A stretch of 64,000 nt of DNA, taken from the NCBI GenBank assembly GCA_963922205.1, contig CAWUHX010000030.1:1364001-1428000 (forward strand), in the 5' to 3' direction. Shown one piece after another: positions 6,005 through 57,857 of this stretch (its first letter is position 1; every line of letters begins with the position of its first letter). The notes beneath the pieces are model-generated. The model made no database searches. It saw only the letters and a program-made list of their open reading frames with translations, and was not told the DNA's origin. Origin of the DNA: Romanomermis culicivorax (taxonomy: Eukaryota; Nematoda; Enoplea; Mermithida; Mermithidae). Both the position numbers and the translations under genes were made by a program.

Positions 6005-9000
6005 ATCATTGTCCGACAATATTGGCTCCTCACTGGGGAAGACGTGGTGTGAGTTATTGTAGTTGTCATAGCGGACGTCGGAGCCATCGGTGGCTGCCAC
6101 GTGGTCCTGGGTGGAATCGAAGTTGAGGATGGCGTGGCAGGTTCCGCGTCCATAGGTGGCGGCGGTGGGAGTGGAGCCTTGAAAACATCTTTCGGCGGGT
6201 TTTTGAGAGCTTCCATACGTCTTTGAATTTGGGCATCTCTGTGCAGCCGGCTGATATAATCCGTCAACTTTGGTGACTGGCGGAAACGGTGCTGGTAGGC
6301 GTCTTCGTAAAAACCCATCGTGTGCACCTGGCGCATTTGCTCGCTCTGAGTGCAGGGCTGCGGTGCATCATCGCGGCATTCTTGTTGATGGCTATCACGG
6401 CTGGTGGCGTGAATTTGCTGAGTTTCTTTACGGTGGCGATCATCACGAGAGTGAGACTTGTGGCCTGAACGGTGACTATCTGATTGATGAGCAGGCGACG
6501 GTTGTGTGGCTGGCGCTGCTGTTTTCGTTGATGTGATTTTCGGTTTCGGCGTGGAAGTGGTCTGCGAAGTTTTGTGAGCTTCTTCGCTGGCTTTCTGTTT
6601 ATCACGCTGTTCGCGGCAACGGGTTGTTCGTTTGCTAGGCGTTTTGCCGTGCTCAGCACGCGAAGTACTGGGTGGCGGCGTACGCCTTGTGCTGGGTTCG
6701 TCCGTTGTTCGCGTTTTGTGAGATTTCCGATATTCGGCCTCTTCATGAAGGTGTTGTTTGCACTTCACGGAGTGTTCGTAACATCAGGGTTTTGGAATAG
6801 GTTGGCCATGACGATCTAGAGCCGGCACAGACGTGCTGGGGGCCTGTGGGGTTTGAACATCCACAGGCGCCATCAGCAGCACTAGAGTTGCGGCCTGGGG
6901 CGGTTGCGGCGCCGGTGGCGGTTGGAGAGCAATTGGCTGGGGTAAAGTGACTGGCGGTTGTACGGCCATTTGAGCAATAACTGGAGCCATTTGAGCAATT
7001 TGAGGAACGGGGGCTATCAGCATGGTTGGTGGCAGCAGAATGTGCTGTATCTCTTCCTTAAGTGCGGGGGGGTAATCCATCCAGTGGTGTTCCAGGAACA
7101 ACATACCTGGCAGCGGTGGTGGAAAATGATACGCGGTAAGTGCTGTGGCCAATGCGTTCCATTGAGAATCTGAAATTATATGTTGCGAAAAACGAACAGG
7201 TGCACTATGCCTGGCGGCGGCAACGGTGGCTATGATCGGAGGTCTGGGGAGAACTGCCGGAGTGGCCAAGTAAATTTGCGGGTCTACGGCAGGTACCGTT
7301 GCGGGCATCATAGTGGCGGGTTCTATAGGAACAACGTCTATTGACGTGGACTGATCGACCGTACTTTCTTCAGGTATGTCGGTTAACATTTGATCGGTGG
7401 TTGTGGTTGTTTCAGTATCCATCGCGGCGGGTTGGACGGGAGTGGATTCATCCATCGGCACTGGAGCGAGGGTTGCAATTCCATCGAGCATCAGTTTAAA
7501 AAAATCAGTGATTTGGGTCGCCGTCGCTGTAATATCGGATGGTGCGGCAGGCATAGGAAGGGCCGACACGTCGGTTGACAGCGGCAGCTTCCCTATGTTC
7601 AGGACGAAAATTGGCATATCCAAAAGCTCTTCATTGGCGGGTTCCACTTCGACATCAATAGGGCAGTCAAGCAGTTCCTCGGCGGTGAGCGTGTGCACCG
7701 AAGCCGTAGTGGGCATGGGGTACGCATACACCGGGGCGGGGAACGAGAATCGATTTTGAAAGTCGATGATGGCGATGAACGTGGAATAAAGGTGGAAACG
7801 GCTGTGCGGGTTGGCGGTGTAATCGGATTCATCGATTTTCATTTCTTCAACGGACGTTTCCATATGGAATTCCTCATTGAAGATGATCGGGTGTAAGGTG
7901 AACCTGTTGCAGACGTATGTACCGGGTTCGCTGGTGAAAGACGGCTCCCATTCGGGGATGCGATTCATCCAATCGGTGAGGCGCGATTTGGGGTTGCCGT
8001 CTGTGCGGTACCACATACAGTCATAGAAAACAGCACGCCTTTCGGAATTCCTATTCTGGGCATGGCGGAGCAACAAGTCGTTCACGAAGGCGTATTCGGC
8101 AGCCGAACACGGAGAGGCCAAAAGCGCGGCCAACGGCATGAAGGAAGTTAGCCGTCGGAACCAATCGCCATCGACCTGTAAAAAGTTAAGGAGGGTGGAG
8201 GGGTGATAACGATAACAGGTACCCTGATAAGTTCGCTCGCGCAATGGCTGATTGGCGGCAATGCATTTGATCCATACATCGTCAACTTCGTGCCGAATTG
8301 GTGGCAACGCGGAGTCATTGTATTGAATTCGATCTCGAATAGCCAATTTGTATATCAGGGAAACGGGGAAGTTGAGGAGTTTGATGGTCAGGTGGGTAAG
8401 GTTACTCTTCATGGCCGAGGTGACGGCTGCTTGAAGGCATTTCGCATTGTCGAATACCAATCGTGGTTGGAGGGCCAGGTCTTTGTCCTCAGAGACATCT
8501 GGTGATTTGTTCCACTCATCCTTCTGTTTCTTTTTCTTCTTCTTGTGTTTTTCGGGGTGGTGAGCAGCTTCGGATGAGTCGTACAAGTCAAAACTTTGAC
8601 GCTGTGGAAACCATTAGGCACCGTTCCTAAACAAAAAGACGGACCGTGGTCGGACGATGTGCAATCAATCGTACATGAAAAATTTATAAGCGGAAAGAAC
8701 TTCGTCTCACATGATCCTGGGAAGAGCGACTTGCCATATAGTGGGATACACTCGATCCGCGGAGTCGGGGGATAGAACATCCGACAACGCAACGTTGTGA
8801 AAGGCGGCCATGATTGTCTCGGCCAGGTGGTCGATTTGGGCGGCATCCAACGAGTCATGGGGAAACAACGCAGGGGCGTTGTAAACCTCGGGGATGAAGC
8901 TGTTACGACCGAAAGCCAAAAACAACAACAGCAGATAGTCAGCATCGAGGGCCGGGTAGGCAGGGACGTCCGATTGCAGGAACGATGTCGCCAGGTTGTT

Positions 9001-9665
9001 GAAAAATCGCAGGGCAGCTGGGAATCGTAGCGTGAGTTCGGAAACGTCCAGCGCCCACATGGCGGAAACGGTGGCTTTCAACATACGTTTTTCAGGAAAG
9101 AATCCAATTCTCCGAGCCAGCTCATATAGGGGCGGGGAGATGTCGATATTTCGGATTACGCGGTAGGCGTCAAAATGGATGGCCTTAACTGTGGGATCTT
9201 TACTATTCTTTTGACAGTCCGTCAGGAACTGAGTACCCAAAAGAGCGTATATTCCCGCCCAGTCATTGGCTTCATCGAAAGAAACTACGATGGTGTGGTC
9301 GCCGTTGACTAGAGAGAATAGTGCAGTCCATTCTTCCAGGGTAGCGGTGAAAGTTTTGAAAACAAACATCGTGCCATTAGGGAACGCCAGTTAGACGTAT
9401 CGAGGGTAGCTGGACGCCGTGGAGTCGGCTGGCATAGGCATGGTAAACTGAAAATTCTTCATGTCCACGGCCATGATCGATTCCGTGTCTAAACTGATGA
9501 GGGTGTAGCCTCGGAAGTTTGGTGTGGGTTGGGCGGCCAAGGCCTGCCCCAAACTTCCAGGTGAGAGAAATATGGGTGGCGGCAACACATTCAGAGGTCG
9601 GGTGTACATAGAGATGTGCCACGATTCCAAATCGGCGGTGCGGATCAAACGTTTGACGTTGTTTT
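6005..9665 (-). pseudogene. Element e1 third ORF: exonuclease-like multidomain protein, broken
   Basis: This is the second exon of the e1 extra ORF. Its N-terminal part has the DEDDy exonuclease layout: ExoI SLDTES (Asp codon 9487-9489, Glu 9481-9483), ExoII with Asp at 9262-9264, and ExoIII AYPALDAD (Tyr 8956-8958, Asp 8944-8946). After it come a Lys-rich linker (about 8550), a conserved domain of unknown function (about 8480-7730), a Pro/Thr-rich acidic stretch (about 7650-6790), and a basic Ser/Arg-rich part containing [10 protein letters not shown] (about 6320). It is broken by stops near 9391, 8707 and 6784 and a frameshift near 8590. Yet all four acidic residues and the ExoIII Tyr are still present. 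The homology with e2 ends at about 6005-6040. It follows e1 pol and precedes the envelope-like gene. Confidence 0.65.
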
Positions 9666-17882: not shown

Positions 17883-20800
17883 AAAATAAGGTCAAACAAT
17901 TGATCCGCACTGCCGACTTGGAATGGTGGTACGTCTCCATGTACCCCAGACCTCCGAATGTGCTGCCGCTGCCGATCTTCCTCTCACCTGGAAGTTTGGG
18001 GCAGGCCTTGGCCGCCCAACCCACACCAAACTTCCGTGGCTACACCCTGGTCAGCTTCAACACCGAATCAATCATGGCTGCGGACATGAAGAATTTCCAG
18101 TTTACCATGCCTTTGCCAATTTCCAGTTTACCATGCCTATGCCCACGATATGTTCAGCTCGCGTTCCCCAACAGCACAATGTTCGTTTTTGAAACTTTTG
18201 CCGCTACCCCAGAAAACTGGACCACGCTATTCTCCCTAGTTGACGGTGAACACACCATTTTGTTTCCTTCAATGGAGCCGAGGACTGGGCGGGGATATAT
18301 GCTCTGTTACGTACCCAGTTCCGGACCAATCCCCAAAAGAAGAATAAAGACCCCGTCCTCAAAGCAATCCATTTTGACGCATATGGCCTAATCCGCAACA
18401 TCAACATCTCACCGCCACTGTACAAGCTGGCTTGGAGAATAGGGTTTTTCCCTGAAAAGCGAACCCTGAAAGCTACCGTTTCCGCCATGTGGGCGCTGGA
18501 TGTTTCAAAACTTATGCTAAGATTTCCAGCCGCTTTGCGATTCTCCAACAACCCATCCACATCCTTCCTGCAATCGGACGTTCTCGCATACGCAGCCCTC
18601 AACGCCTACTATCCGCTTCTAATGTTCTTGGCTTTTGGCCGTTACGGCTTCATCCCCGAGGTATACAATGCCCCCGCGTTGTTTCCCCACGACTCGTTGG
18701 ACGCCGCCGAAATTAATCACCTCGCCGAGACAATCATTGCTGCTTTTCACAACGTCCCGTTGTCGGAAGTTCTACCAGCTGATTCCGCGGATCGAATTTA
18801 TCCCACTCTCTAGCAAATCGCCCAATTTATCCCACTCTCTCGCAAATCGCCAAATCTGCTTACAAATTTTTTATGTTTGATTGCACATCGTCCGACCAGG
18901 GTCGGTCTTTTTGTTTAGGAACAGTGCCCAAGGGTTTTCGCAGTGTCAAAGTATTGATGCATACAAGGCACCTGAAGCTTCTCACCGCCTCGAAAGTGCC
19001 CAAGAAAAAGAAGAAGAAACAGAAAGACGAGTGGAACAAATCACCAGACGTCTCTGACAATGAAGACCCGGCCCTCCAACCTCGATCGATATTCGATGAT
19101 CGGAAAGGCCTTCAAGCAGCCGTCACATTGGCCATGAAGAGTAACCTCATGGACCAGCTCATCAAATTACTCAATTTTCTGGTTTCGCCCATGTACAAAT
19201 TTTCTCTCCGTGATTGCCTTCAATACAAACTGATCCCACGCTGCTACCAATTCCGCATGAAGTCGACGATGTGTGGATCAAACGCGTCGCCGCCGACCAA
19301 CCACTCCCCGATCGAACCTACCAGGGTACTCATTACCACTATCACCCCTCCACCATTTTTAGTTTTTTACAGGTGGATGGCCACTGGTTTGGACAGCTAA
19401 CATCTTTCATGCCGTTGGCTGCACTCTTGGTTCACCTTGTTCTGCTGCCGAATACGCCTATGTTAACGATTTGTTGCATCGCCACGATCAAAATTTTGAT
19501 CTGGCAATGTGTACCGCTTTCTACGACTGTATGTGGTACCGCCCCGATGGCAACCCCCCATCGCGTCTCACAGATTGGATGAATCGCATACCCGAGCGAG
19601 AGCTGTCTTTTGCAAGGGACCCCAGAACATACGTCTGCAACCGGTTCACTCTACGCCCAATCATCTTCAATGAGGAATTCCACATGGAAACATCCCTTGA
19701 ACAGATCGATATCGATGAATCTGACTACAGGGCTAATCCACATAGCCATTTCAATTTCTACTCAACCTTCATCAACATCATCGACTTCCAAAATCGATTT
19801 TCATTCCCTGGGCCGGTGTATGCCTACCCCTTGCCAACTACAGCCTCGGTGCACATGCTCACCGCCGAGGTACTACTCGACCGCCCTATGTTAGGTGTCG
19901 AAGTCAAACCTGCGGACGAAGAACTATTGGATACGCCGATTTTCGATCTGAATATAGCGAAGCTGCCCTTGTCAACTGACGCGTCGGCCCTTCCTACGCC
20001 CGCTACCCCATCCAGTCCTACAGCGACAGCCATGCAAATTACCAACTTCTTGAAACTGACGCTTGATGAAATTTCAACCCTCGCCCCAGTGCCAATGGAC
20101 GAATCCACCCCCATCCAACCCACTGCGATGGATGCTGAAACAACCACCACTACTGACCAAATGTTAATGAACATACCCCAAGAAAGCACCGTCGATCAAT
20201 CCATGTCAATGGACGTCCTATCCACAGAACCTGCTCAAACATTGCCTTGGACGGCGCCTGCCGCAGACCCGCACATCTATCTGGCCACTCAAGCAACGCT
20301 GCCTGGACCTCCGATTATCGCCACTGTTGCCGCTGTGAGGTATAGTGCCCCTGTTCGTTTTTCACAACATATAATTTCAGATCTGCAATGGCAAGCGCTG
20401 GCCGCAGCTCTCACCGCTTACCATTTCCCATCTCCGCCGCCCAGTATGTTGTTCCCTGAACACCATTGGATGGACTATCCGGACGCGCTCAAGGAAGAGA
20501 TACAACAAATTCTGCTGCCACAACCAACGCCAGCTGTATCGGCTCCTCAAGTCGCTCAACCGGCTCCGGTAATTGCTCAAGCCGCCATACAGCCGCCCAC
20601 CGCACTGCTGCTGCCGCCCGTCTCTCAACCACCCCCGCCTGCGCCTCTATTGCACAGGCTCCCAGCAAGTCCACGCTGGCTTTAGACCACCACGGCCTAC
20701 CCATTCGAAAACCCCGATGTTAAGAACACTCCGTGAAGCACAAGCAGCATCTTCAGGGAGAAGCCGAATATCGAAAATCTCACAAGACGCATACAACAAA

Positions 20801-26859: not shown

Positions 26860-26870
26860 ACAGTCACCAG

Positions 26871-27417: not shown

Positions 27418-28404
27418 CTTCTTGAACTACAGGCAAGCCAGGGGTCAATCAAACACTTTCTAGTGTTCTACTATAGCATTGTATTGCCATATCATGTAAA
27501 TTTATTCGCTGTGGTGTTAGTTTGCTGTTTCCCAATATATAATGCTGCAACAAGTTGGGATGAAGTACAAAAGCCTTCTTCAGGACAGTTGAAGCATTGC
27601 TTTCCATTTTATATGGCTCATCAGTGGCAGCTGGAACATCTTCAGATTCTTTTTCAAAGTTGGTGATTGTAATTTTTAGATTAATAGCAATCCAGAACTA
27701 TGATTTTTGAAGGGGCGCAACCTCTGGCTGGTCTTTATGAACCACATGATGGATTTCCAAGCTTTGGTAACTGTTCAAAATTCAATATTTTTGTCTTGAA
27801 TATGCTTTCAGTACCAACCTTGTAATCTTTAGTTGCCTTGACTTCAGTAGATGTAAACTGTAAATTGAAGTAGCTCCTGATACCAACTGCTTTAAGATCC
27901 ATCTTCTTGTGTGGGATTTTGAGATTGCCAAGGATGAATGATGTTTCCTTGACCTTTCCATGTGTCATAGCACATCTGATTAATTTGTCAGCAGTTGTAC
28001 ATTTATTATTGTGCACTTTTTTAGTGCAGCAATGCGGTCACATGGACTTTAACCATATTCGGAATCAGAGAAGTCTCAGTTCTTGATAGTCACACCTGTT
28101 TTCTGAGATATTGCCGGCACGATGAGCAAGGTTGGGGAGCCATGAAAACATCCAGCATTGCCTGATTGCACAAAAGCTGTGTTGATTGTTTGTTGTTCTG
28201 CCTTGATTTTTGTCAATGGGTCAGTCAGTATTCAATAATTGCATTACTGTCTTGTGCAAGTGAGTTGAAAACATGGTTAAATGTGCTGTGGTGTAGCAGT
28301 CCACTTTTTATGCCAAGGGCATATGTGATTTGCCATAGTAAATGGCACTTACCAAACCAGCTTGACTGATCTTTCCATCCACTGGAAGGCAGAAATTTCT
28401 TTGC
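27418..28404. other. Degenerate stretch of unknown origin
   Basis: A minus-strand frame of 93 codons (27735-28016) has a protein-like composition (Lys, Ile, Thr) but no family I recognise. Other frames are short and interrupted. It may belong with 24696-26175 to one broken element into which family A inserted. Confidence 0.3.
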
Positions 28405-32899: not shown

Positions 32900-33785
32900 A
32901 CCCAAAAAGCCTCAGAAATACCTTTGTTTTAAATAGACACAGAACAATTTCTTGTGTGAAGTGATTGTGTCCATTGTATTCCGCATGGTCAGAAACCTAT
33001 CCCCTCGAAAATCGCAGAAATATCTTTGAAATACACTCAATATAATTTTGTGTGCAAAGTAATCACATTCATTAAATTCCTTGTGGTCGAAAACTCCTTC
33101 CACAAAAAAACCACGAGAATAGGCTCGATTACGCCCGAGATAATTTTTTTGTGTAAAGTGACACATTCATTGATTTTCTGCAGCCGAAAACCTTTTTCAC
33201 AAAAAAGTAATGAAAATACGCTTGTTTACACCGGGAATAATTTTTGTGTAAAACGATCACATTCATCAAACTCTTCGTATTCAAAAACTCCCCCCAAAAA
33301 ATTACGAAAACAAACTTGTTTACACCCGGGATTATTCTTTAAGTAAAGTGATTGCATCCATCAAATTCCCTGTGGTCGAAAACACCTTCCACCGAAAAAT
33401 CACGAAAGTACGCTTGTTTACACCCGAGATAATTTTTTGTGTACAGTAATCGCATTAATGAAATTCTCGTGGTCGAAAACCCGTTCCACCAAAAAATCAG
33501 GAAAATACGCTTGTTTACACCCGGGATAATTTTTTGTGTAAAGTGATCACATTCATTAAATTCGCCGCGGTCGAAAGCCCTTTCCATATAAATATTACGG
33601 AAATACGCTTGTTTCCAACCGGGATAATCTTTTTGTGTAAAGTGACTGCATCTATTGAATTCCCCACGGTTAAAAAGTCCTTCCACTGAAAAATCACGAA
33701 AAAAAGCTTGTTTACACCCGGAATCATTTTTTCGTGTTAAGTGACCGCGTTCATCGAATTCCCAATGGTCGAAAACCATTACTGC
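32900..33785. repeat. Tandem repeat of about 98 bp, about nine units
   Basis: The block ACGCTTGTTTACACCCGGGATAAT and its variants recur near 33120, 33218, 33314, 33409, 33507, 33605 and 33703, a spacing of 96-98 bases. More diverged units lead in from about 32900. Each unit also has a GTGTAAAGTGATC and a GTCGAAAACC block. Minus-strand frames through it encode repeats of the unit and are not genes. It lies inside the 4.9 kb transposon, next to the MITE. Confidence 0.8.
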
Positions 33786-44190: not shown

Positions 44191-44194
44191 CATG
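44191..44194. repeat. e5 target site duplication CATG, left
   Basis: CATG directly before the TG of the left LTR, repeated at 57854-57857 directly after the CA of the right LTR. Ty3/gypsy integrases make duplications of 4-6 bases. Confidence 0.8.
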
Positions 44195-45028
44195 TGTCGT
44201 ATTAAGGTTCTCGTATGCCCTCGGCTGCCTACCTGCGGTTCTTGGGAGATCCAATCTGGTACGGCCCCTGACGCTAACCCGGTACTAATTTCACTCCGAC
44301 TGCAGTGAGTTGAGACTTGAGGTACGTGAACGTTTATTAGTGAGCAAAACACAACAGGTAGTGAAATACAATGAGGAGTGTAAGTACGAAACAAAGGTGC
44401 AGAGTGCCGAAAATATAAACACTGACGCCAACAACCTCCCTAGTCAACTGATCCTTCCAATTTGTCCCTGAGCAGCGAGCCACAGGGCCAATGGGATCTC
44501 TCAGGGCACGGCCTAAGCTGAAACTCTACCAAAAGTAAGTGAACTAACTCACACAACCACTCACGATTCCTTTCTTCAAAATGGAACGTCGAAAACGTCT
44601 CAGGCCGCGTTATCACTCAAAATCCGCCCGCGGCGCGTATCACGAAATACAAATAAACAAGACGACGATCCTTTCCTCCGTCACCGTCGTCAAAAATAAC
44701 ACAGCGTCCGAAAACTACGGGGTGGACGCCAATACTACGCAAAGGAGAGGCGATTCTCCAGACGACAATATTTGCCACAATAATAATAATAAGAAAAACT
44801 AAGAATGAATAAAAACGCTGGCGCGCGTCTGACATCGACCTGCAAGTGATATGCAAAACATTTGCGCCAACCATTTGTTTATTTTAGACCAAAAATATGA
44901 GTGACACAAACCGTTTTATCGGTTTGTTTACCTGAGAATAAATGAAAACGCTTTAGCAATAAAGAAACTTTAGAAAATGAAATGATGTAATTAGAGGACC
45001 AAAGGTCAGAGGAATTGACCCTCTGACA
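44195..45028 (-). repeat. e5 3' LTR (834 bp)
   Basis: TGTCGTATTA ... CCCTCTGACA on this strand. Differences from the other LTR: G against T near 44206 and A against C near 44612. It follows the polypurine tract in element orientation. The short open frames inside both LTRs are the same on both sides and need not be genes. Confidence 0.9.
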
Positions 45029-45045
45029 TCCCTCCCCCCCAAAGG
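45029..45045 (-). promoter_or_regulatory. e5 polypurine tract
   Basis: TCCCTCCCCCCCAAAGG on this strand, read on the minus strand as a G/A tract ending at the 3' LTR. Expected plus-strand primer for reverse transcription. Confidence 0.8.
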
Positions 45046-46190
45046 CAAGACTTTTCCCGCCAGCGAAGGGAAAAGTCAGGAGGTCCCCCAAGGGCCCCCG
45101 ACCCTCGACGCCGACGATCGACGCCTCCAACTGTTCCAACCAACGACGCTACGCGCCGTTGACGCGATTATAAACAATAAAAAATAAAATGTCCGTATCA
45201 AACGGTATCGTTACAACTTTGGGCCAATTGCGCCGGATGCTACCCGACGCTAAAAAGTTCGCTAATAAAATGCCCCGTGGGCTCGTGGTCCCGAATAAAA
45301 GAATAAAAAATGTTCGAACGAATAGCGTTCTCGGCACTCGGGCCGAATTTTGATCAAGATAAAAATAAAAACGTTTTATCGGCGGCGACCCCCGCGGTGC
45401 CCGAGTTAGGTTGTGGGCTGCTCCCCACTGCCGTCGATTTATTTCGTATCGGCGGCTCCTCCATCACGGATTGTGGCATTCGTCTCCGTCCTCTCCGGAG
45501 GGGGGGTTGTTGCTGTGGAGAGCCCGCAAGACTTTCCAAATTCCGCCGCCGTTCCTCCTCTGGCCCCTTGGCCGGACACTGGCCCCCCCGACGCCTTTGG
45601 TATTATCTGCCCCCAGGGAGAAAGGATGCCCGAAAACCAAATCCTCTGGCCCTTTGGCTGTCTAGATTTTGAACCAAAAATATTTAAGGTATTTATTGCT
45701 AAAGTGAATTTGCCTTATTAAGAGGTAAACTTAAACCCATAACACGGTCTGTGCCACGAAAAAATTTTAGAATGAAAATGTGTTTTGGAAAAAAGATGGG
45801 AAAAAATATGAAAATGGCAGCGCAAAGCCTGCTATCCTTGGGCGATGCCAGTTGGTGACTTTTGTCGGAAAGGAACAAAATACCCGAGATTTAAGAAAAT
45901 ACAAAAAATTGCTCAATAATTTCCAGATTCGCAAAAAAAAGAAATACGATATATTCCCGTGCAGATCTCGAACACAACACAAACGAAAAAATAAATGAAA
46001 CAATTTGAGATTAGTACAAGAGGCAACTTTAAGGCATAAAAAAGGTGGCACAACCGGTTCGATTTTGTAATACAGACGCTCACAACAGAGAAATAGGTAA
46101 CTTTTGAAATATCGAAAAAATTTTACAGAATGAAATAATTATCTTTATAATGACCTCACGGAGAGTGGGGTCATCTGAAACATAAAAAAT
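45046..46190 (-). other. e5 3' untranslated region, GC-rich in part
   Basis: About 1.15 kb between the stop of the second ORF and the polypurine tract. The part 45050-45660 is GC-rich and unlike the neighbouring DNA. There is no envelope-like gene and no frame on the element strand that I can support. Long plus-strand frames around 45310-45720 follow the GC-rich composition and are antisense to the element. Confidence 0.45.
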
Positions 46191-49100
46191 TTACTTCCTT
46201 CTATGACCGCTATGGTCACGTCCCGGTTGACCAATACCGGTTTCCCGTTTAAGCGGCGAAATATAATCGGGATTTTCAGTCGACGGCGGTCTCGTACTCG
46301 TAGACGTCCCCGGGATGTCCATCCTTTCCTCCGTTTGCGCATTACGCACCGGCGGAATCATTGTAGGCGGGGGCATCTGCATTCCCGGCGGAACTAAGAA
46401 CTGGTGGTAAAATTGGGGTTGCCCGGCCTGGAATTGCATGACCGGAAACTGCGGGACTTGAAACTGTGCCGGCGGCGGCACCATTGTATTCGGGAATAAT
46501 TGTCCTGAAAAAAGAGGGCGGTTTATACAATCAACACCCACCATCGGCAATCCCGGATAATTCGGCGGTAAATAAGGTAACTGCTGCTGCTGGGCTTGCA
46601 TCATCGCGTTTGGATCGGCCATTGACACTCCTTGCTGAGTTGTTTCGGTGGCCCTAGACCTGTCCAGTGAAGTCCTTCGACTGGAGTAGGACACGTCCAC
46701 TCTATCATCGTGTTGGTAATATGCGGCTGTTCTTTTCCTACTTCGAGACTCTCTACTACCTTTATGTTCTGCCGCTTCTCTTTTTTCTCTTTCCTTCCTT
46801 TCGTATTTCTTTTCGTAGTCATCGATCTCCTTGCGCCAACTTTCTTCTTCCGCTTCCTTGCGTTTCTTTTCCCGCGACATCGACTTCTCGTGACGACTTT
46901 CGTCTCTGTGTCGACTTTCGTGCCTTCTTTTTCTGTCGTTTTCGGGCGTTTTCGATTTCTCCGTTCTTTGCGTATCACTTTCTTTTCTACTCCATCGTTT
47001 GGATACCTTACTGGTCGCAGGCCTAGCGTGGGCATGCTTGACTCGGTATCCCACTCTTTTCTTTAAGGCTTTTTGAACTTCCAATATATCGTGAGCCTTC
47101 TTCCGATCGATAACTTCCCAAAACCGTATTCTGGGGTCCGTATTGTCTGTTTCTTTTTTCCAAACTTGTATGTTCGCATATTTCGGTTCGGGGTCTTTCT
47201 TGTCTTGAAGCACGGCCTTGGCAATCGTATAAGCTAACCCCGCTGCCTTTGCCTGACATGAGGAGTATAACCTATGAAAATTGCTCCCTGCTCCTCCTTG
47301 CCTAGCGTTGAACTCGCGGCGCAATTTCATTGTAACATACGCATGGGCTTGGTAATGGAATCCGGCGAAATTTTGGGGAATCCTACCCAATCTCGACAAT
47401 TTCATAAATAAGCACGCACAAGCCCATACGGCGGCTTCATAGGCTTTCTCCGCAGACCGTGTAGTACTCCATTCTGTTAATTGAAGCTCGAAAATACTCC
47501 ACAATTTTTCTGGCAAATTCGCCTGTAGAACGTGAAACTGTAGTTCGTAATATCGTATAGTTTCAATTTCGATCCCGGCTTCGTCGTACACACGGTTTAT
47601 CAAATCCGTCGCCATTAGAGCTACCTCCTCGTCTAAAGTCGGATCCATGTGCGCAAGATACTTCTGGACACATGGGTTCGACAGAGATACTCTCCCATAC
47701 TGGAAATCGACGACGTACTTTCCTTCCTTCAAAGCCTTATTAAGAACTTGTCCCCGTTTCCCGAGGCCCCGTCGATACTTGACTTTATCATTCGGATTTC
47801 CGGCTGGTTGTTGAAACTGCCCGCTCTTTACTTTGTCCAGTTCGGCTTTATTTTCTTCGTGACCTATCCGTTTCTCTGTAGCCTGTCTTTTCGATTGCAT
47901 CACTTTAGCAAATTTGTCCGGATTCTTGATATTCTCTACATTTTGCCCACCGGCTTTTGCATAAACCGGCGGCGTGGGCAAAACGTTATCCGTAATTTCT
48001 TCGTCATCGCTACCAATCTCTGATACCACCTCCACGTAGGGTTCTTCGCTCGTTTCTTCTTCCTCGGGATTGACATCTTCTAATTGCTTTGCCAATTCGA
48101 TTGCGGCCCTGCCGTACTTTTCTCTTTCCAAAACTTCTATTTTTTCTTTCATTTCTTTTATCTGGTCGGTTAATTTCTCGAAATCGGGTTGGGTTTCTTT
48201 TTCAGTTTCGACTACTTCCATGAGTTTCTCCTCCTCTTCAACACCTGTACTCCCCTCAGCGGGTGTACTGGCGATAGGGGGATCCGTGATGACCACAACT
48301 ACGGGTTTCTCTTGCTCCATCTCGGTACCTGAAACATTCGAATTATCTATTGTAGAGGGTACTGTTACAGTCTGCTCCTTCGAAGTTTCTTCCATAGGGC
48401 CCTGGCTAGCGGGAACCACAACTTCTACTTGCGGATACAGATCTGAATCGTCCCACTTATCTACAGATTTAAAAGTCGCAGAGGTGCTAGGGGCCCATAG
48501 GTCCTTAGCCTCGAATATGGACGCGGAAACGTTCCAGTAAATGAGGTTCTGACTCGCGGCATGGATATTCAGAAAATGAAACAAGTTATAAAAGTTACAA
48601 TTCATATGATAAATAGAATTATCGCGCAAATTGGTCTTTATTTCTTGGATAGGTTCTTTGCAGGATCGCGGTATCCATCTTATAGGTAGTACGCAAAAAG
48701 TGTTCTGGATGGATTTCGGCGTACGTATCTTCGGATACCGTTCCATCATCTGCTCCATCTGATCGGTAATTCTGTCGTTCAAAAGATCCTGGCCCATCCA
48801 CTTCATAAATTCAACCCGTTCCTGTTCATTTCTCCACACAGAGGCCCACATACCAGACGTGAATCCCGGAACCCAGGATTTCCATTCTTGCGCCGAATGA
48901 GGCCACAAGAAGTAGATAATCGGGTTTACGTTTTTCTCGTACAACTCTTTGACTATGGGAATGATTGATCGGTTGATTTTGGAGTGATAATGATCTTTGA
49001 GTGCCGAAACTTGTTCTCGTATAACATTAGTAAACTGGATCACATCCTTAGGCCATTTTCCTTTCTTCATTTCCATTTCCCGGGGTTCAATTGGCCGTCC

Positions 49101-50262
49101 GAAATGTCGTGCCGCCAGGATATCCTCTAAATCCCAATCGTTTGCCGGTGCTTCTTCGGAACCGTCGGTATCTTTTCTTTTCCTTGACGCTTTCACTTTT
49201 CTTTCTATCCACGGGAACCAACCGTTGGGTACTGGCTGTGGCTCAATATCGGTATTTGAGAAATGCGGAGGACAATGAAAAGTCCCGGGCGCCATTTCTT
49301 CCGACGATTTATACGTCGCGATAGCCTCTCCACGCATCATGAAATACAACGCGTTTGTGTTATCCGTTACTTCTTCCACTCCATATGGTCCTTTCCACTC
49401 TGGATCGGCAATTCTGCCTTCGAACGTATCTCTGAATCTTCGTGCTAGATCGGAGATCAATTCCGGCTCCATTGTATCGTGTGGGTACAATTGAAAGCAA
49501 TTTTGAATATCGCTCGCGAATCCATATCGAAGTAAAGCTAAAAAACATAAAAGCGACCCGCGCGCGTCGAGCGTCGCGTATCTCAAAAGTTCTATGTTTA
49601 GCTTATCTGCCTCCATTAGCTGTCGAAACTCCAGGGAACTCAACTGTCCCCACGAAATCTTGAAGGCGTCGGCCCATAAAACAAAATTTCCGTCATGAGG
49701 GCTTTCAAATTGAGACCTTCGGGGCTGATTCCGACTATTCTGGCTTTCGGCTTGTCCTTCATTTCTGCCAACACAATCTCCAAATCGTAAACGCAGCACG
49801 ATAAAATATAATCTATGTTGTCCCGTCTTTTCCGCACTAGTTCTTTTTCTTGATCCAAATATCCGAATTTGGTCAAAACTAACGTGATATCCTCTCGAAT
49901 ATGAAAACCGACGATGATGTTTTCGCGGCGAAATATTGTTCCATATACTTTGTGGAAATGTTCTTTGTCCCAAAATTTCAAATCGATTATGAAGTTTTTC
50001 CCGCACATGGTTGAAATTGTTAAAAGTCGCAATGCGTCACTAGGCTTCGATCCTGGGGTTTTTGGCTTCCTCCCACTTTCTGTATCCAACGCTATGACTA
50101 TCCGTCCTCGGAACTTCGAATTGTTTATCGCTCTAATAAATGCTTTCAAATTTTCGGGCGCCAAAAATAATGGTTCTTCGATGGCCGCATGAGGCACACC
50201 GAACAACGATGTAAAATAATTTGAAATATCCGTTGAACGTACTAATCTCCGAACATTGTAAT
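46191..50262 (-). CDS. e5 second ORF, exon 2: DEDDy exonuclease-like multidomain protein
   Basis: No ATG opens this frame; it starts behind acceptor TTTTAAG at 50263. The exonuclease-like part has ExoI ALDTES (Asp 50084-50086, Glu 50078-50080), ExoII VGFHIREDI (Asp 49889-49891) and ExoIII RYATLDA (Tyr 49578-49580, Asp 49566-49568). A block typical of RNase D/MUT-7 proteins (GLNLKALM) lies before ExoIII. There the frame changes by one base (between about 49720 and 49640), a real or sequencing frameshift. Then come a conserved domain shared with e1 and e2 (about 49060-48540), an acidic Glu/Thr-rich part, a coiled coil (about 48180-48060), a helical domain (about 47690-47100), a Lys/Arg/Ser-rich part (about 47000-46680) and a Gln/Pro-rich tail. 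In the family such enzymes remove nucleotides from 3' ends; here the substrate is unknown. Confidence 0.7.
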
Positions 50263-50471
50263 CTTAAAATTTTCACACAATTTTCTAACTACAATTTTTG
50301 ACAATAATTTCGAAACAAAAACGACTCAAATGCACAAGAATAAATTTGGACGAAGGGGAGTTGATCAGGCTCTCAAACACCCAAAATCCTCGGCATATAA
50401 ATTGCCGGCCGGTCAACTTAGAGTCCTATTCCGAAAAATTTCAACATACATTCTACCTTTCCAATACTTAC
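50263..50471 (-). other. e5 intron in the second ORF (209 bp)
   Basis: Donor A|GTAAGT at 50471, acceptor TTTTAAG ending at 50263. Exon 1 leaves one base and exon 2 supplies two, so the frame is kept. The codon before the acceptor G is an in-frame TAA, so without splicing the ORF is closed. Counterparts with TTTAAG at the homologous residue are found in e1 and e2. Confidence 0.55.
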
Positions 50472-50556
50472 TACTGAGTTGAAAATTCGTATTATCTTGC
50501 CGATCTTGCGGCTGCCCGAAGGTGCTATCAACTTCGACGATAGTGGACGTTGCCAT
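50472..50556 (-). CDS. e5 second ORF, exon 1 (28 codons)
   Basis: ATG at 50556 opens MATSTIVEVDST... and runs for 28 codons plus one base to a consensus GTAAGT donor. It has the same length and place as the MTTPST peptides of e1 and e2. It starts about 400 bases after the gag-pol stop, so it must be translated from a separate or spliced transcript. Confidence 0.55.
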
Positions 50557-50955
50557 ATCGCGTTTGGATCCGAATTTCTTGAAATTTCCAATCGACGAAA
50601 ATTACTAATACACTAACGCTTTGCAAATGAAATCTAAAAAATAATTCCATAATTCCTCGACTTCGCGACTTCAATGATTCGGGGAAGATTTTCCCGGGAC
50701 TTATAAAGATTTAATTTTTTCACACTGAGCGCGTGAAAAAATATTATTTCGCCCATTAAAAATTTTCCGGCGTCGTAATTTTTTGGAAAATGCCTAAAAC
50801 TTGCCATAAAGTTGCCAAAAATAAGTCAGTACAATTAAAAATTGAAAAAGGAGAAAGGGGAAAAGGTTAGAAAAAATATAATACATAGGGCATTAGAAAA
50901 TACACATAAAATTAATCCTAACAAAACGCACAACGAAAACGATAAAAATGAATTG
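50557..50955 (-). other. e5 spacer between gag-pol and second ORF
   Basis: About 400 bases with an A/T-rich stretch and no frame on the element strand. It is at the position where a promoter or splice acceptor for the second ORF would be expected. No motif that I can name. Confidence 0.4.
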
Positions 50956-53900
50956 TTAATTACAGTAAAAATCGGGCGTTCGCGTAACAAAAGGCATTAC
51001 GCGATTTACAGAAACTATTTGTACGCGCGAATCTGGTTTCCCAGCGCGACGTATTTTAATGACATTTTTTTCTAAATTCGATGTCTCAATTACTTCGTAC
51101 GGACCGTCGTTTGTTGTATCGGCCTTTCCTTTGATAATTCCCTTTTGGTAGAGAACAAGTTCTCCCGTTCGGAATGTTTTTTCGCGAGCCTTCTTATCGT
51201 ACTGTAGTTTCCTTTCGGCCGCGGATTTTTTATGGTTTTCATTTATGATTTTATACGTGTTAAGGAGGTGCTCCGTTAACATGTATCTGTAGGTATCGTA
51301 ATTATTCTGGATAATTATTGGCCTCGCTATCTCATTATCCAATTGAAACCTAGCCTCGTGCCCGTACAATAGGCTATGGGGGGAATTTTTCGTTGTTTTG
51401 TGCGGCGTAATCCGATATGCAAATAAAATTTGCTCGAGATAGTGTGGCCAATCGTCTGGGTCGGTTATCGCGACTCTCCTAATTTGTTCTATTAACGTTC
51501 TATTGAATCTCTCCACCATACCATTGCATTGCGGGTGGTATGGTGTTGTATTTATTTTCTTTATTTTTAAGAGATCGCACACATTGCGCATTAACTCGGA
51601 CATATATGCTGAGCCTTGGTCACTCAGCAGGTGTTTCGGTGTGCCGTGCGTATAAATGACCTTTTCCATAAATGCCTTCACTATTGTGTCGGCCTTTTGA
51701 TCTGGGATGCATTTTGCTTCGACCCATTTCGTGAAATAGTCCATAAATACAATAACGTATGGTCTTTTTTCTCGAAGGGGCGAAATACTGACCACATCGG
51801 TTGCTACTATCTCCCAAGGATACGAGACGGGTATTGGGTTAAGTGGTTGGATCGGATTTGCTATGGGGCGGCACAGTTGGCAAACGACGCAGGATTTTAT
51901 CCATTTAATAATGTCGTTTTCCATATTTGGCCACCAAAACTTGTTTCCTATCGCGGCGATAATTCTATCTATTCCCTGGTGTCCCATTAATGTATCGCCG
52001 TGATATTGATGTAAGATGAGGTGTCTAAGTCTTGATGGGATCACTAGTTGGCTTTTTCCATGGGCATTTTCACGGTATAATACTCCGTTTTCCAAGTGAA
52101 AACTATTAAAGTATTTTTTCGAACTATTTTCACCAACGTTCCGAAAAATGTCCGCCAACTTCGGATCCAATTGTTGTTGTTTCTGAACTAATTCCAGGGA
52201 AAACAATTCGGAATCTTTTTTCACTTCCTTCGGTGTTTGATCTATTTCTTGTTGGGTCGGCGGTGGGGGATCAATGAATGTTTCCTGAGTCTCAGGTTCA
52301 AGCATTTGCCTCGTCATGGCTCTCGTAACCGCCATGCATTCGGGTTCCGTAGTCGATTTCTCCTCTTCGATTTCTTCCTTCGTTTCTTGTCTTTTACTTC
52401 GACTCTTTTCCTTTTCTTCGGACCGTGATAAGAAATCTGCAAAGGCGTTTTCTCGTCCCGCTACGTATTCAAAAGTATAATTGAATTGACCAATATATAA
52501 AGCCCATTTTAACAATCTTTGATTTTGCTGTTTCTCTGCGGAGAGCCACGTGAGTGGTTTATGATCTGTCCTGATCGTGACCCTAAACCCCATCACGTAA
52601 TGCCTATACTGCTTGAACCCGTAAACTACTGCCAAACATTCTCTTTCTGTCGTTGAATACCTTGTTTCCGCGTCGTTTAAAACTCGACTCGAGTAGGCTA
52701 TTGTCCATCGATCATTTTCCGTTTCTTGATACAAAATTGCCCCTATTGCCGTTCCTGAGGCATCTGTTTGAATTACAAATCTTGCCGACCCGTCAAATAC
52801 TGGGTATCGGAGGAAGGGTGCCGTCATTAGGGCATTCTTTACACTTTCGAAAGCTGCTAACTGCTCCTCTGAAAGTTCAAACTTTTCCTTCCTATTTTTC
52901 TTTGCGAGGGCTTTAAATAAGGGCTGGGCGATAAAGGCTAAATTGTGAATGAAACGTTTAGACCACTGCACTAATCCCAAGAACTTTTGCAGCTGCTTGA
53001 TGGATTTGGGTACTTCGAAATTTTTTACCGCTTCTATCTTTTGTGGATCTACTGACATTCCGTTCTTGTCCAATATGTGGCCTAAGAATTTCACACTGGC
53101 TGGCATAAAGGAACATTTGTCAGGTTTTAGTGTGAGGTTCGCATTTATTAGACATCGAAATATTGTCTCTAAATTTTCTATATGCTCTTCGACGGTTTTT
53201 GAAAAAATTATAACATCGTCGATATATACTAGGCATATTTTCCATACGTATGGGTACAAAATTCGTTCCATGAGTCGTTGAAATTCCGCGGGAGCATTCT
53301 TTAGGCCGAACGGCATCACCTTGAACTGGAACAAACCTTCTTGACATATAAATGCTGTTTTTTCTTTTGATTCGGAGTGCATGGGTACCTGCCAATACCC
53401 CGACTTTAAATCCAAAGTAGAAAAGTACCGTGCTCCTCCCAGCGCATCTAAATAATCATCTATTCGAGGTATTGGAAATTTGTCGTCTTTCGTCACTTGA
53501 TTGATCCCTCTGTAGTCGACTACTGGTCTCCATGTGCCATCTTTTTTGCCTACTAAAAACAATGGCGCAGCCCAAGGGCTTCTAGAAGGCTCGATGACAC
53601 CTTTGTCCATCATATCTTTGACATGTTCTCGAATTATATCTCTTTGCATAATTGGCGCTCTCCAGTAGTGTTTTTGAACAGGTAGCGCATCTCCTGTATC
53701 GATCTTATGCTCCGCTTCATGGGTGATTGTTAAAGGATCGCTCTTCATGCTAAATGCCTGCCTATGCTTGAGTAAGACATTCATGAGCTGTTGTTGCCCT
53801 TCTCTATCGACACTCGATTCTTTTACCAAGTGCGTAACGATTTTGACGAATTCTGGTTCGGTTTGCCATTGATTTTGGGGCTCCGATTGCAGTTGATGTA

Positions 53901-56900
53901 CTTTTTCGTCAAATTCTGGCCCCACGAACTTTGTTTTGGTCTTGGCTATCAACTCGTTGCCACGCAATTTGATTCCTTTGTTTGTCTCATTTATTAGTAG
54001 GATACGAAAATTATTGTCTTTAGCGTCCACGATTGAGGCATCGACGTCAAATAAGGTATCTTTCCCCGTCTCTTCTACCACTATGGGACCCTTTGCCCAA
54101 TCTTTCTGTGGCCAAACCACAGCTTGCACAAAAGAAGTGGTATTTGGGGGAATATATGTCCCGTTTTTTGTCCAAATAAAGGTTTCTTCGTTCATTTCAG
54201 TAATTCGCATCACTTGTTCCTGATCCTCGTCACTTTCTAGTTCAGGTAGATCTTCTTCTTTGACTTCCTCTTGTAGAGGTACGTAATCGAGAACCATTGG
54301 ATTCGTAGGAATTGGTAAACGGGACGGTATTTGCGCATCGTCGAATAATGTCTCACTAATAATTTGTTTCTCTACATTTGCTAGGCGTATGTGGCCGTTT
54401 CGAAAATCGATAGACGCCTGTATACTAGGATGGGTTAGAAAATCTAGACCCAATATAATACCTTCATTTAGGTTATCTAGTAACGCGAATCTGGCCAAAA
54501 AATTCCCAAAACCGGTTCCAACGTACACAAATGTAGGACCATATGTTGTCACTCGTTTTCCAACAGCTGTTACTACTGAATTTAAGATAGGGAATTTTGT
54601 CTTGGGCGTATTCAGTAGCCTTGACGCTGTATCTGTCCTCATGAAGCTAGATTGCGCTCCCGTATCTATTAGGGCTTTAAATTCTTCTCCGCGTATCCTA
54701 ACGGGTATCAATAACCGTTGACATTTGCGAAAATTTTCCAAAAATAAGTGCTCGTTATCATTGGCGAGTCTAGGCTTTGTCTCTGAAGTAGAATTGATAA
54801 CGTTCCCCAAGCCTAACTCGTAGTTTTCAATCAAAACTCCATCTAATGCTATAATTTCCGGCTTATCTTGTTTTTTAGCCTCTTGTGAATTTATAACATT
54901 TACGGAATTATTCGGAGGGTTATTCACCGGTTGCGATGTTGTTGCGGGTACAATATTTGGCGGTGGCTGCGGGACGTTATTTTGGCGGTAATAATATGCC
55001 ACATTAGGATTCTGTTCGACGTTATTATTGTGATATGGCACCCGTTGACCGAAATTAGCAAATCCTGCTCTTCCACGATTTACAAAGCCGCCGCGATGGT
55101 CAAAATTTCGATTATAAAAATTATTGCCGCGATTCCACGACCTCCCTTGATCCGTTGGTTGGATCAATTCCGGGTGCAGGATAAAACAATTTTCAGACGA
55201 ATGACTATTCGATTTGTGGTATGTACAATATGGCCGACGATACGGATTTCCCAAAATTCTACCAGGTAAATTGTTATTATATGGTACATTATTAGGACTA
55301 TTATTGACTCCCCAACGATTAAGAGTTGGAGGGCCCTGACCCCTAATTGCTTCATTAACCATTTTCATAATATCCTGCTGGGACAAAGGGGTTTGAAATG
55401 CTGGTGGCGGCGGGAAAATTTGCTGAGGCCGTATAATCTGTTGTTGTTGACCAGTATTACTATCCTGCGGACGAAATTGTAAATTATTAAATCTTCTATT
55501 TTCATAGACTCTATTCAACCGATCATCTTCGCCGTCTTCTTGGTCCTCGCTGAATTCCTTCCAGGCCGTCGTATCGGCTTTCAACTTGTTTACGAATTCC
55601 GCCAAAGAGGCGATATTTTTGAACTCGTGAAGCCGACCCTCCATTCGCGTTTGGACGTAAACTGGAGCCTTGTGAAAATACGTTTCGATGACAATACGAT
55701 TTCGTTCATTTTCGGTTTTTTCGTAATTTAATAAATGAACATAAGTTTTTATTCGGCGTAAAAAATCCTTTGTTGTCTCCCCTTTTCGTTTTTTCATATC
55801 ATGTAACTCCCTTCTAAGTGCAGGAGTGTCCATTTTTGGAGCAATCATTCTAATCACACTCGCCTTCCCTTCTTCATAGCTACCATTCTTATCCACGTAT
55901 GTCGAAGTTTCAAAATCGCAACATCGCCAAAGTACTTCAATTCTTAGATCTTCCGTATCTTCAGGCTTGAATGTGCCTTCCAAACAGGCGAAAAAATTGA
56001 GTATCTCCGCGGCCTCCATTTTATCCGATATTTCTTTATTCTTCATTCGACCTAAAATTATCTTGATTCTTTTTTCGGGATCTTCACAATATCGTCCATA
56101 ATCCTGCTGATTTCGATTTATACTTCCAGACACAGGTTGTTCCATTCCGCGATTCCATGACGTCGTTGGTATTTCATCTTCCATCCTTCGATATTGTGCG
56201 CCTTGAGCCTGTGCCTGGGCAAGATGATTTTGAAACCAATTTAATTTTCTCTCTAAACTTCTGTCTAAATGTTCTTTAGCCGGTTCAGACTGAAGTATGT
56301 CTGTATTTTCGTAGTTTGGTATTCTTTCATCGAGCTTTCTATCTGTTTTCCTCATCAACTCCCGCATTTGTTTTTCGACCTCTTCCATTACCTTCCTCGC
56401 ATTTTGTTGATCCTGTTCTCGTAACCTTTCTTCCAATAATTTTCTCTCTGCTCTTTCTTGCATAAGTTGTTCTAATATTTCTTGTTCCCGGAGCGCTGCT
56501 TTCGTTCTTTCCACATTAACAGCATTTGTTGATTTATCGACTGCTCTTTGCATTGATTCCAGGATGGCTAAAGTGGCCACATCCTGCAAATTCCCTTTCG
56601 TCAGTCTTTCAGTTTCATTCCTCGGTTTCGTTTCGATACCAATTTTTGCGTCGATTTCCGGTATTGTAGGCGTACATTTCGAATTATGAAATGATACCAC
56701 ATTCGTTTTCGGAGTTACATTAATCTTCTCGAAGGATGATACTGAACCAGAGGACGTCTGTATCCCCTGATCCGCATAATCATATGTCTCTGCGTCAATA
56801 GTCTGATCTTTGTTGCTGTCATCGGGTGAACTCGCAAATTTCTTTGCTACTTGTTCGATCGTTGCTTCCATATTTGCCATCCGTTCGTCGTGATCCTCTT

Positions 56901-56988
56901 TATTCAATTCCATTTGCGATAATGTTACTTTCGGCCGTCGTCCAGGTTGCTTCCGTATCGTTAATTTCGGCTTCGATACTTTCTTCAT
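50956..56988 (-). CDS. e5 gag-pol polyprotein (2010 aa), Ty3/gypsy
   Basis: One uninterrupted frame whose ATG lies only about 31 bases behind the 5' LTR. Gag: acidic/basic N-terminus with a coiled coil (residues about 140-230), capsid-like region, and a Cys/His cluster [14 protein letters not shown] near 591 with an unusual order of ligands. Protease: IDTGAQSS near 773 and [26 protein letters not shown] and YIDD near 1256. RNase H: QTDAS near 1405, TDHKPLTWL. Integrase: His/Cys zinc-binding region about 1660-1700, catalytic ATD near 1729, SDQGS near 1789, VERFN near 1825, and a GPY module near 1962. All catalytic residues are in place. Gag and pol are fused in one frame, with no frameshift signal needed. 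It makes and integrates the element's cDNA. Confidence 0.93.
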
Positions 56989-57000
56989 CTTTTACCTTTG

Positions 57001-57019
57001 TAGCTGCACAAGTCACCAA
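57001..57019 (-). promoter_or_regulatory. e5 primer binding site
   Basis: In element orientation the LTR end TACGACA is followed by T and TGGTGACTTGTGCAG, complementary to a tRNA ending in CCA. It shares TGGTGAC with the family A elements. tRNA not identified. Confidence 0.65.
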
Positions 57020-57853
57020 TGTCGTATTAATGTTCTCGTATGCCCTCGGCTGCCTACCTGCGGTTCTTGGGAGATCCAATCTGGTACGGCCCCTGACGCT
57101 AACCCGGTACTAATTTCACTCCGACTGCAGTGAGTTGAGACTTGAGGTACGTGAACGTTTATTAGTGAGCAAAACACAACAGGTAGTGAAATACAATGAG
57201 GAGTGTAAGTACGAAACAAAGGTGCAGAGTGCCGAAAATATAAACACTGACGCCAACAACCTCCCTAGTCAACTGATCCTTCCAATTTGTCCCTGAGCAG
57301 CGAGCCACAGGGCCAATGGGATCTCTCAGGGCACGGCCTAAGCTGAAACTCTACCAAAAGTAAGTGAACTAACTCACACAACCACTCACGATTCCTTTCT
57401 TCAAAATGGAACGTCGAAAACGTCTCAGGCCGCGTTATCCCTCAAAATCCGCCCGCGGCGCGTATCACGAAATACAAATAAACAAGACGACGATCCTTTC
57501 CTCCGTCACCGTCGTCAAAAATAACACAGCGTCCGAAAACTACGGGGTGGACGCCAATACTACGCAAAGGAGAGGCGATTCTCCAGACGACAATATTTGC
57601 CACAATAATAATAATAAGAAAAACTAAGAATGAATAAAAACGCTGGCGCGCGTCTGACATCGACCTGCAAGTGATATGCAAAACATTTGCGCCAACCATT
57701 TGTTTATTTTAGACCAAAAATATGAGTGACACAAACCGTTTTATCGGTTTGTTTACCTGAGAATAAATGAAAACGCTTTAGCAATAAAGAAACTTTAGAA
57801 AATGAAATGATGTAATTAGAGGACCAAAGGTCAGAGGAATTGACCCTCTGACA
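57020..57853 (-). repeat. e5 5' LTR (834 bp)
   Basis: Same length and ends as the left LTR; carries the element promoter by position. Followed outward by CATG. Confidence 0.9.
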
Positions 57854-57857
57854 CATG
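57854..57857. repeat. e5 target site duplication CATG, right
   Basis: Second copy of CATG (see 44191-44194). Confidence 0.8.

What the first reader, a model, noticed from the sequence alone, without database searches (positions are those of the whole stretch)
46191..50262. LTR retrotransposon e5 carries a DEDDy 3'-5' exonuclease-like domain in an extra ORF
Seen: ALDTES, VGFHIREDI and RYATLDA in the order, spacing and context of ExoI, ExoII and ExoIII of RNase D/WRN/MUT-7 exonucleases, inside LTRs, behind an intact gag-pol. Known: Ty3/gypsy elements usually have gag-pol and at most an env or small accessory gene; I know of none with this enzyme. Inference: the nuclease may trim cDNA or RNA 3' ends, or counter small-RNA silencing, since MUT-7-type nucleases act in transposon silencing. 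This is the best candidate for an undescribed system in the window.
Basis: partly seen in the sequence, partly recalled or inferred. Interest (0 to 1): 0.92.

Follow-up and report, generated by a model that had tools for sequence, protein, structure and literature searches.

The report
Nuclease gene in nematode LTR retrotransposons
A large family of virus-like jumping genes in a mosquito-killing roundworm carries an extra gene whose front end looks like an enzyme that nibbles RNA or DNA from its 3' end, an arrangement reported before in rotifers, and that part is kept while much of the rest of the gene changes.

Summary
Confirmed, with one correction and one precedent. The window is from a 359 Mb assembly, by protein identity of the mermithid nematode Romanomermis culicivorax. 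Element e5 (44195-57853, minus strand) is a Ty3/gypsy-type retrotransposon: 834-bp LTRs (832/834 identical), CATG duplication, intact 2011-aa gag-pol. Its second gene starts with a divergent DEDDy 3'-5' exonuclease-like domain. In this copy one frame break splits the domain; other copies read it in one ~1360-aa frame (51 of 150 scored copies have a frame of at least 1350 aa, 47 without a stop in the matched stretch). The five catalytic positions are kept in 20 of 20 e5 loci and 8 of 8 loci of the distant e1 family. Profile comparison with RNase D: score 41.9, reached by 0 of 300 shuffles; but Pfam PF01612 stays below its cut-off and no fold could be predicted. dN/dS of the domain is 0.03-0.13. 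DEDDy ORFs in LTR retrotransposons are known from bdelloid rotifers (2017), so the kind is not new; host phylum and gene architecture are. Sister elements with long pol frames but without the domain suggest that it acts in trans or is dispensable. Substrate unknown.

The parts
57020..57853 (-). 5' LTR of e5 (TG...CA ends)
   Evidence: 832/834 identical to 44195-45028
44195..45028 (-). 3' LTR of e5
44191..44194 (.). target-site duplication CATG, left
57854..57857 (.). target-site duplication CATG, right
57003..57019 (-). candidate primer-binding site next to the 5' LTR (TTGGTGACTTGTGCAGC); tRNA not identified
   Evidence: position only
45029..45040 (-). purine tract GGGGGGGAGGGA directly before the 3' LTR
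   Evidence: position and composition
50956..56991 (-). gag-pol ORF, 2011 aa: aspartyl protease, RT, RNase H, integrase
50634..50640 (-). acceptor-like TTTTTAG upstream of exon 1, invariant in 5 of 5 aligned copies
   Evidence: use not shown
50472..50556 (-). predicted exon 1 of the second gene (ATG; 28 codons + 1 base)
   Evidence: ATG and donor GTAAGT kept in 5 of 5 copies; 5 of 6 e5-type R. culicivorax UniRef models read have this N-terminus and the same junction, P0026 begins differently
50263..50471 (-). predicted intron (209 nt), acceptor TTTTAAG
   Evidence: acceptor kept in 5 of 5 copies, the alternative downstream AG lost in 3 of 5
49679..50262 (-). exonuclease-like domain, first part (ExoI, ExoII), frame A
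49410..49685 (-). exonuclease-like domain, last part (ExoIII, to residue 285), frame B; one frame break from frame A in this copy
46191..49685 (-). second gene in frame B, to its stop
   Evidence: 97% identical over 1164 residues to the intact copy L041
46725..47024 (-). R/S/K/E-rich segment (residues 1081-1180; 70 of 100 residues in L041)
8794..9660 (-). homologous exonuclease-like domain of the first e1 element (25% identity, E 7e-12); one in-frame stop
17891..18753 (+). homologous pieces, in two frames, in the inverted second e1 element

Best explanation
The second gene of e5 is a predicted two-exon gene in the env position whose N-terminal ~285 residues are a divergent DEDDy (RNase D-like) 3'-5' exonuclease domain, followed by a region not recognisably shared with e1 that holds an R/S/K/E-rich segment and ends in a P/Q/M-rich tail. 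It is kept by selection as an enzyme. Most likely mechanism: the protein, made from a spliced message, works in the nucleus or the element RNP and trims 3' ends of the element's own RNA or cDNA (structured or tailed RNA ends, untemplated nucleotides on cDNA), as a trans-acting helper of replication. Shown: element, gene, conservation, purifying selection, profile similarity with all catalytic residues in register. Inferred: fold, catalysis, splicing in vivo, location, substrate.
For: LTRs, duplication and intact gag-pol. At least 150 copies (150 scored of 2269 candidates); 125 of 150 pol places have an exo place within 3.5 kb, median distance 1294. Catalytic D, E, D, Y, D in 20 of 20 e5 loci and 8 of 8 e1 loci, and invariant in the 7-row e5+e1 alignment at 28% identity. 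RNase D-type profile: score 41.9, 160 columns, 0 of 300 shuffles; the positive control, family 2, which passes the Pfam cut-off, scores 45.1. dN/dS 0.03-0.13 for residues 1-285 in four pairwise comparisons. The domain is the only part of the gene recognisably shared with e1: the whole e5 protein matches the window's e1 copies only over residues 3-283 at E<=1, and the first ~490 residues after the e1 domain show no similarity by profile. Splice sites conserved and used in 5 of 6 database gene models read.
Against: PF01612 cut-off not reached. e5 and e1 profiles taken alone scored 21.2 and 21.5 against RNase D (reversed controls 12.5 and 8.8), not convincing by themselves. ExoII to ExoIII spacing is 104 residues against 66 in E. 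coli RNase D. No structure prediction was possible. Of the 25 pol places without an exo hit, four with long pol frames were read over 1.8-2.0 kb: three lack the domain and share one arrangement, the fourth keeps only 29 residues, so the gene is not needed in cis. No expression or biochemical data.
Confidence: 0.6

Rival explanations
1. Counter-silencing: the exonuclease shortens the 3' ends of the host's transposon-directed siRNAs, or of their templates, and so protects the element, like a viral suppressor of RNA silencing.
For: Sarkies 2015 (PMC4323106, passages) reports for R. culicivorax no piRNAs, no PRG-1/Piwi and no 5'-triphosphate small RNAs, and says that HENN-1, which adds the 3' 2'-O-methyl group, shows the same pattern of conservation as PRG-1 (which it reports absent outside clade V); siRNAs there may thus have bare 3' ends (my inference). 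A diffusible activity fits the sister copies without the domain.
Against: No small-RNA data for these elements; an enzyme acting in trans on siRNAs would help every transposon in the cell; the MUT-7 analogy is weakened by the reported absence of 22G-type RNAs in this host.
Confidence: 0.2
2. Non-catalytic RNA-binding derivative (like Maelstrom or EXD1) used as an RNA chaperone or export factor, in the manner of CERV of Cer1.
For: Env position, predicted splicing and R/S/K/E-rich segment resemble a nuclear RNA factor; CERV of C. elegans Cer1 is made from a spliced mRNA and is needed for genomic RNA export (PMC10309623, abstract and section 9).
Against: All five catalytic positions are invariant between two families at 28% identity and kept in 28 of 28 loci checked; Maelstrom and EXD1 are catalytically inactive derivatives (as stated in PMC5408684). 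The word exonuclease does not occur in the main text of the CERV paper.
Confidence: 0.15
3. Chance resemblance: a lineage-specific domain without the exonuclease fold that happens to carry DTE, D and YxxxD motifs.
For: Pfam score below cut-off; few relatives match PF01612; no convincing PDB match; spacing differs from RNase D; in the members' Pfam tallies other families match as weakly and as often.
Against: 0 of 300 column shuffles reach the profile score, all five residues align with those of E. coli RNase D, and four alignment modes (41.9-46.2) and an e1 master sequence (48.6) agree; these residues are among the invariant columns.
Confidence: 0.1

Closest known systems
Juno and Vesta LTR retrotransposons of bdelloid rotifers with DEDDy ORF3 (Rodriguez, Kenefick and Arkhipova 2017, PMC5408684)
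   Same: Retrovirus-like LTR element with a third gene after pol that has an RNase D-like DEDDy exonuclease domain; more than one element lineage of a genome carries one.
   Different: Nematode host; no dUTPase domain found in e5 gag-pol (Pfam scan), whereas all members of Juno and Vesta contain one; the e5 gene would encode about 1385 residues with a two-exon start. Sequence relationship of the nuclease domains not tested (no rotifer sequences at hand).
Family 2 elements of the same genome (L001-L020)
   Same: LTR elements with a DEDDy exonuclease ORF: the domain lies between the LTRs in 6 of 6 copies fetched with both flanks.
   Different: Passes the Pfam PF01612 cut-off; shorter ORF (up to 614 aa); in four of the six only RNase H-integrase stretches matched e5 pol inside the LTRs; no significant sequence similarity to the e5 domain.
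RNase D / WRN / mut-7 / EXD2 (DEDDy exonucleases, PF01612)
   Same: ExoI DxE, ExoII D, ExoIII YxxxD in register with RNase D over 160 columns.
   Different: Below the Pfam cut-off, 38 more residues between ExoII and ExoIII, no HRDC or helicase domain found by Pfam in the gene.
CERV of Cer1 (C. elegans)
   Different: CERV is 517 aa with H, M and G domains, and its exons 1-3 are in the gag frame; no exonuclease mentioned; no sequence comparison was made here.

Membership tests
DEDDy (DnaQ-like, RNase D type) 3'-5' exonucleases | ExoI D-x-E | tested here: met
   20/20 e5 loci, 8/8 e1 loci
DEDDy (DnaQ-like, RNase D type) 3'-5' exonucleases | ExoII aspartate in register with RNase D | tested here: met
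DEDDy (DnaQ-like, RNase D type) 3'-5' exonucleases | ExoIII Y-x3-D (the 'y' of DEDDy) | tested here: met
DEDDy (DnaQ-like, RNase D type) 3'-5' exonucleases | Profile similarity to known members beyond chance | tested here: met
   41.9 vs max 26.2 of 300 shuffles; an earlier run with fragment-laden rows was unreliable, its highest of 100 shuffles scoring 135
Pfam PF01612 (as curated) | Gathering score 23.6 bits | tested here: not met
   16 bits for the window piece, no hit for the intact 1357- and 1361-aa proteins; so filed as DEDDy-like, not as a PF01612 member
DEDDy (DnaQ-like, RNase D type) 3'-5' exonucleases | RNase H-like exonuclease fold | not testable with these tools
   structure prediction switched off
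DEDDy (DnaQ-like, RNase D type) 3'-5' exonucleases | Metal-dependent 3'-5' hydrolysis | not testable with these tools
   needs a bench assay
Ty3/gypsy (Metaviridae) LTR retrotransposon | LTRs, target duplication, protease-RT-RNase H-integrase order | tested here: met
Ty3/gypsy (Metaviridae) LTR retrotransposon | RT placed in the Ty3/gypsy clade by a tree | not tested
   only domain order and Pfam families
Juno/Vesta DEDDy elements of rotifers | DEDDy-like domain in a gene after pol | tested here: met
Juno/Vesta DEDDy elements of rotifers | dUTPase domain between protease and RT | tested here: not met
   no dUTPase family among the 12 Pfam families listed at E<=1 for the 2011-aa gag-pol
CERV-type genes | Gene after pol, spliced | tested here: inconclusive
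   conserved splice sites and gene models, no RNA data

The most novel reading that the evidence does not exclude
In a nematode without piRNAs, 22G-type RNAs or (by the published pattern) the 3' methyl group on small RNAs, several gypsy lineages depend on a trans-acting 3'-5' exonuclease that destroys or shortens the siRNAs aimed at them: a transposon-encoded silencing suppressor that sister elements without the gene freeload on.
Probability: 0.15. Interest if true: 0.88.

Novelty: new variant of a known kind. Interest (0 to 1): 0.52.

Why it matters
It takes DEDDy-carrying retroelements, in the papers read reported only for bdelloid rotifers, into nematodes. One genome holds at least two sequence-dissimilar exonuclease lineages (e5/e1 and family 2), and between e5 and e1 the exonuclease-like domain is the only recognisable common part of the gene, as far as compared. 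That points to the nuclease as the reason the gene is kept. The genome also holds sister elements with long pol frames and without the domain, so expression and small-RNA profiles of the two kinds can be compared.

Tried and rejected
Frame break as a programmed frameshift: rejected for this copy, because many other copies have one continuous frame. Exonuclease as a host gene between two elements: rejected, since it lies between the LTRs, with pol upstream in 20 of 20 exo-selected e5 loci, and 125 of 150 pol places have it at a near-constant distance. First profile comparison with 27 rows including fragments (score 56.4): discarded as evidence, because the highest of 100 column shuffles scored 135 and one alignment mode gave 167; replaced by 14 long rows. 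e5 against family 2: no convincing similarity. Relatives elsewhere: viral contigs 85 pattern matches, 0 confirmed; protein search with an intact ORF2, 0 at E<=0.001 of 6912 candidates (only proteins of 0.55-1.75 times its length are candidates); with the e5+e1 domain, 82 proteins at E<=0.01 among the 8000 candidates scored, all 82 listed as R. culicivorax; with family 2, 8 of 8 R. culicivorax among 1861 candidates. PHROGs: only weak hits (best E 0.013) to families of unknown function and one tail family. NCBIfam: nothing for the two window pieces. In one search three of the five residue positions were off by one; redone correctly.
Full report
What was checked. The window is G000:C30:1364001-1428000 of a 359,112,060-base assembly in 595 contigs. 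Of 90 R. culicivorax UniRef proteins compared with the ORFs of the loci fetched by then, two are 100% identical over 233 and 215 residues (only a sample of the genome was compared), so the host is taken to be this mermithid nematode (taxonomy); the assembly itself is unnamed.

Element. e5 runs from 44195 to 57853 on the minus strand: 834-bp LTRs, 832/834 identical, CATG on both sides, a 2011-aa gag-pol frame with protease, RT, RNase H and integrase domains. A purine tract precedes the 3' LTR and a candidate primer site follows the 5' LTR.

The second gene. An ATG exon (50556-50472) with donor GTAAGT, a 209-nt intron and the acceptor TTTTAAG ending at 50263 are conserved in 5 of 5 aligned copies; an alternative AG further on is lost in 3 of 5. 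Nine UniRef proteins were read; six are e5-type, of which five (P0011, P0012, P0017, P0057, P0061) carry this N-terminus and the same junction, while P0026 begins differently. Whether these models rest on RNA data is not known here. In the window copy the frame breaks once near 49.68 kb. In 150 scored copies (2269 candidates) 51 have a listed open frame of at least 1350 aa, four of them with a stop inside the matched stretch, and 71 of at least 1000 aa (from the list). Four long-frame copies were read (L041-L044). Intact copies exist; none is singled out.

Is it an exonuclease domain? By Pfam it is a sub-threshold match: 16 bits, E 0.011, cut-off 23.6; the two intact proteins scanned give none, and 2 of 21 and 2 of 48 relatives match at E<=5, no more than some unrelated families. 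PDB sequence searches gave nothing for e5; a profile of e5+e1 listed EXD2 at E 1.5 with the ExoIII region in register. The e1 elements in the same window carry a homologous domain (other e1 copies 25-27% identical, E about 1e-25 to 1e-26), which gives depth. In the 7-row e5+e1 alignment D60, E62, D125, Y229 and D233 are among the invariant columns. A profile of 14 long rows against 15 sequences (13 RNase D or RNase D-like by similarity, 2 polymerase-linked exonucleases) aligns over 160 columns with the five residues on D28, E30, D85, Y151 and D155 of the E. coli protein: score 41.9, probability 78%, none of 300 column shuffles above 26.2; other alignment modes 41.9-46.2; e1 as master 48.6; positive control family 2 45.1, its 100 shuffles at most 20.9. 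Taken alone, e5 and e1 score 21.2 and 21.5. I therefore call it a divergent DEDDy-like domain, with the fold untested.

Selection. dN/dS of residues 1-285 is 0.13, 0.03, 0.03 and 0.10 in four pairwise comparisons of four copies; dS is saturated in the two wide ones (1.9 and 2.2), so 0.03 is rough. In those two the domain has the lowest dN of the five segments compared. In 20 of 20 e5 loci (L021-L040, the window copy included) and 8 of 8 e1 loci the catalytic residues are kept; two e5 loci and two e1 loci (one of them the window copy) show one stop in the aligned stretch. Between e5 and e1 nothing beyond residue 283 was found alignable: the whole e5 protein against the window's two e1 copies at E<=1, and by profile against the ~490 residues after the e1 domain that the fetched loci hold; the last part of e1 copies outside the window was not fetched.

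Linkage and loss. pol lies upstream of the domain in 20 of 20 exo-selected e5 loci and 8 of 8 e1 loci. From the other side, 125 of 150 pol places have an exo place of the separate list within 3.5 kb; both lists are capped at 150 of thousands of candidates, so misses may partly be a cap effect. Four of the 25 misses, chosen for long pol frames, were read over 1.8-2.0 kb: three (L142-L144, 91-94% identical to each other, pol frames 2009-2011 aa) lack the domain and jump from the pol/intron region to the last part of the gene; the fourth (L145, pol 2010 aa) keeps 29 residues. So the gene is dispensable in cis, by trans-supply or outright.

A second lineage. The PF01612 search of the genome gave 80 places, all over the cut-off. 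The six fetched with both flanks are LTR elements of 7.4-11.3 kb with the domain between the LTRs in 6 of 6 (LTR matches 95.8-99.8% identical), with ORFs of up to 614 aa. Their domain has no significant similarity to that of e5.

Known before. Rodriguez, Kenefick and Arkhipova 2017 (PMC5408684; abstract, Results 3.1-3.4, Discussion and legends read) describe DEDDy ORF3s in rotifer Juno and Vesta elements, acquired at least twice, related to those of Athena elements, and discuss 3'-end processing and silencing roles. A review mentions DEDDy 3'-exonucleases in rotifer Terminons (PMC6431247; two passages). Seven searches of the open library (listings capped, subscription papers missing) listed no report for nematodes that I recognised; two listed papers that mention Romanomermis and retrotransposons (PMC5177903, PMC4157794) were seen as listings only. 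Some R. culicivorax UniRef entries are already named '3'-5' exonuclease domain-containing protein', so the domain is annotated but, as far as searched, not described.

How it may work. Position, predicted splicing and the R/S/K/E-rich segment suggest a nuclear or RNP protein; the CERV protein of Cer1 shows that a spliced gene with an ORF in the env position can handle genomic RNA (PMC10309623; abstract, sections 6 and 9 and passages). Trimming of the element's RNA or cDNA 3' ends is my first choice (about 0.45 taken alone), counter-silencing second (0.2), helped by the reported absence of piRNAs and 5'-triphosphate small RNAs in this very species (PMC4323106; passages). Both are inference.

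Noticed in passing
window 5983-21668: Two related gypsy elements (e1 type) lie as a large inverted pair; both carry broken copies of a second gene with the e5-type exonuclease-like domain.
   Followed up: partly
L142 (C370:28900-30700), L143 (C53:786300-788250), L144 (C320:133300-135300): Three sister copies with long pol frames share one arrangement in which most of ORF2, the domain included, is missing; 91-94% identical to each other. LTRs not checked.
   Followed up: partly
L001-L020: A second exonuclease-carrying group of LTR elements with LTR matches of 383 to 1268 bp; in four of six only RNase H-integrase stretches matched e5 pol inside the LTRs.
   Followed up: partly
window 23098-27418: Inverted repeat with 1185-nt arms, 95% complementary, 1951 nt apart.
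   Followed up: no
window 33067-33731: Six copies of an 82-nt unit at spacings of about 97 nt, with one gap of 192.
   Followed up: no
window 45041-46190: About 1.1 kb between the stop of the second gene and the purine tract has no assigned function; a matching stretch is kept (79-83% identity) in the three copies without the domain.
   Followed up: no
P0009 (A0A915K5M7_ROMCU): An e1-type exonuclease-like protein is named 'DNA-directed DNA polymerase' in UniRef, perhaps an automatic misnomer.
   Followed up: no
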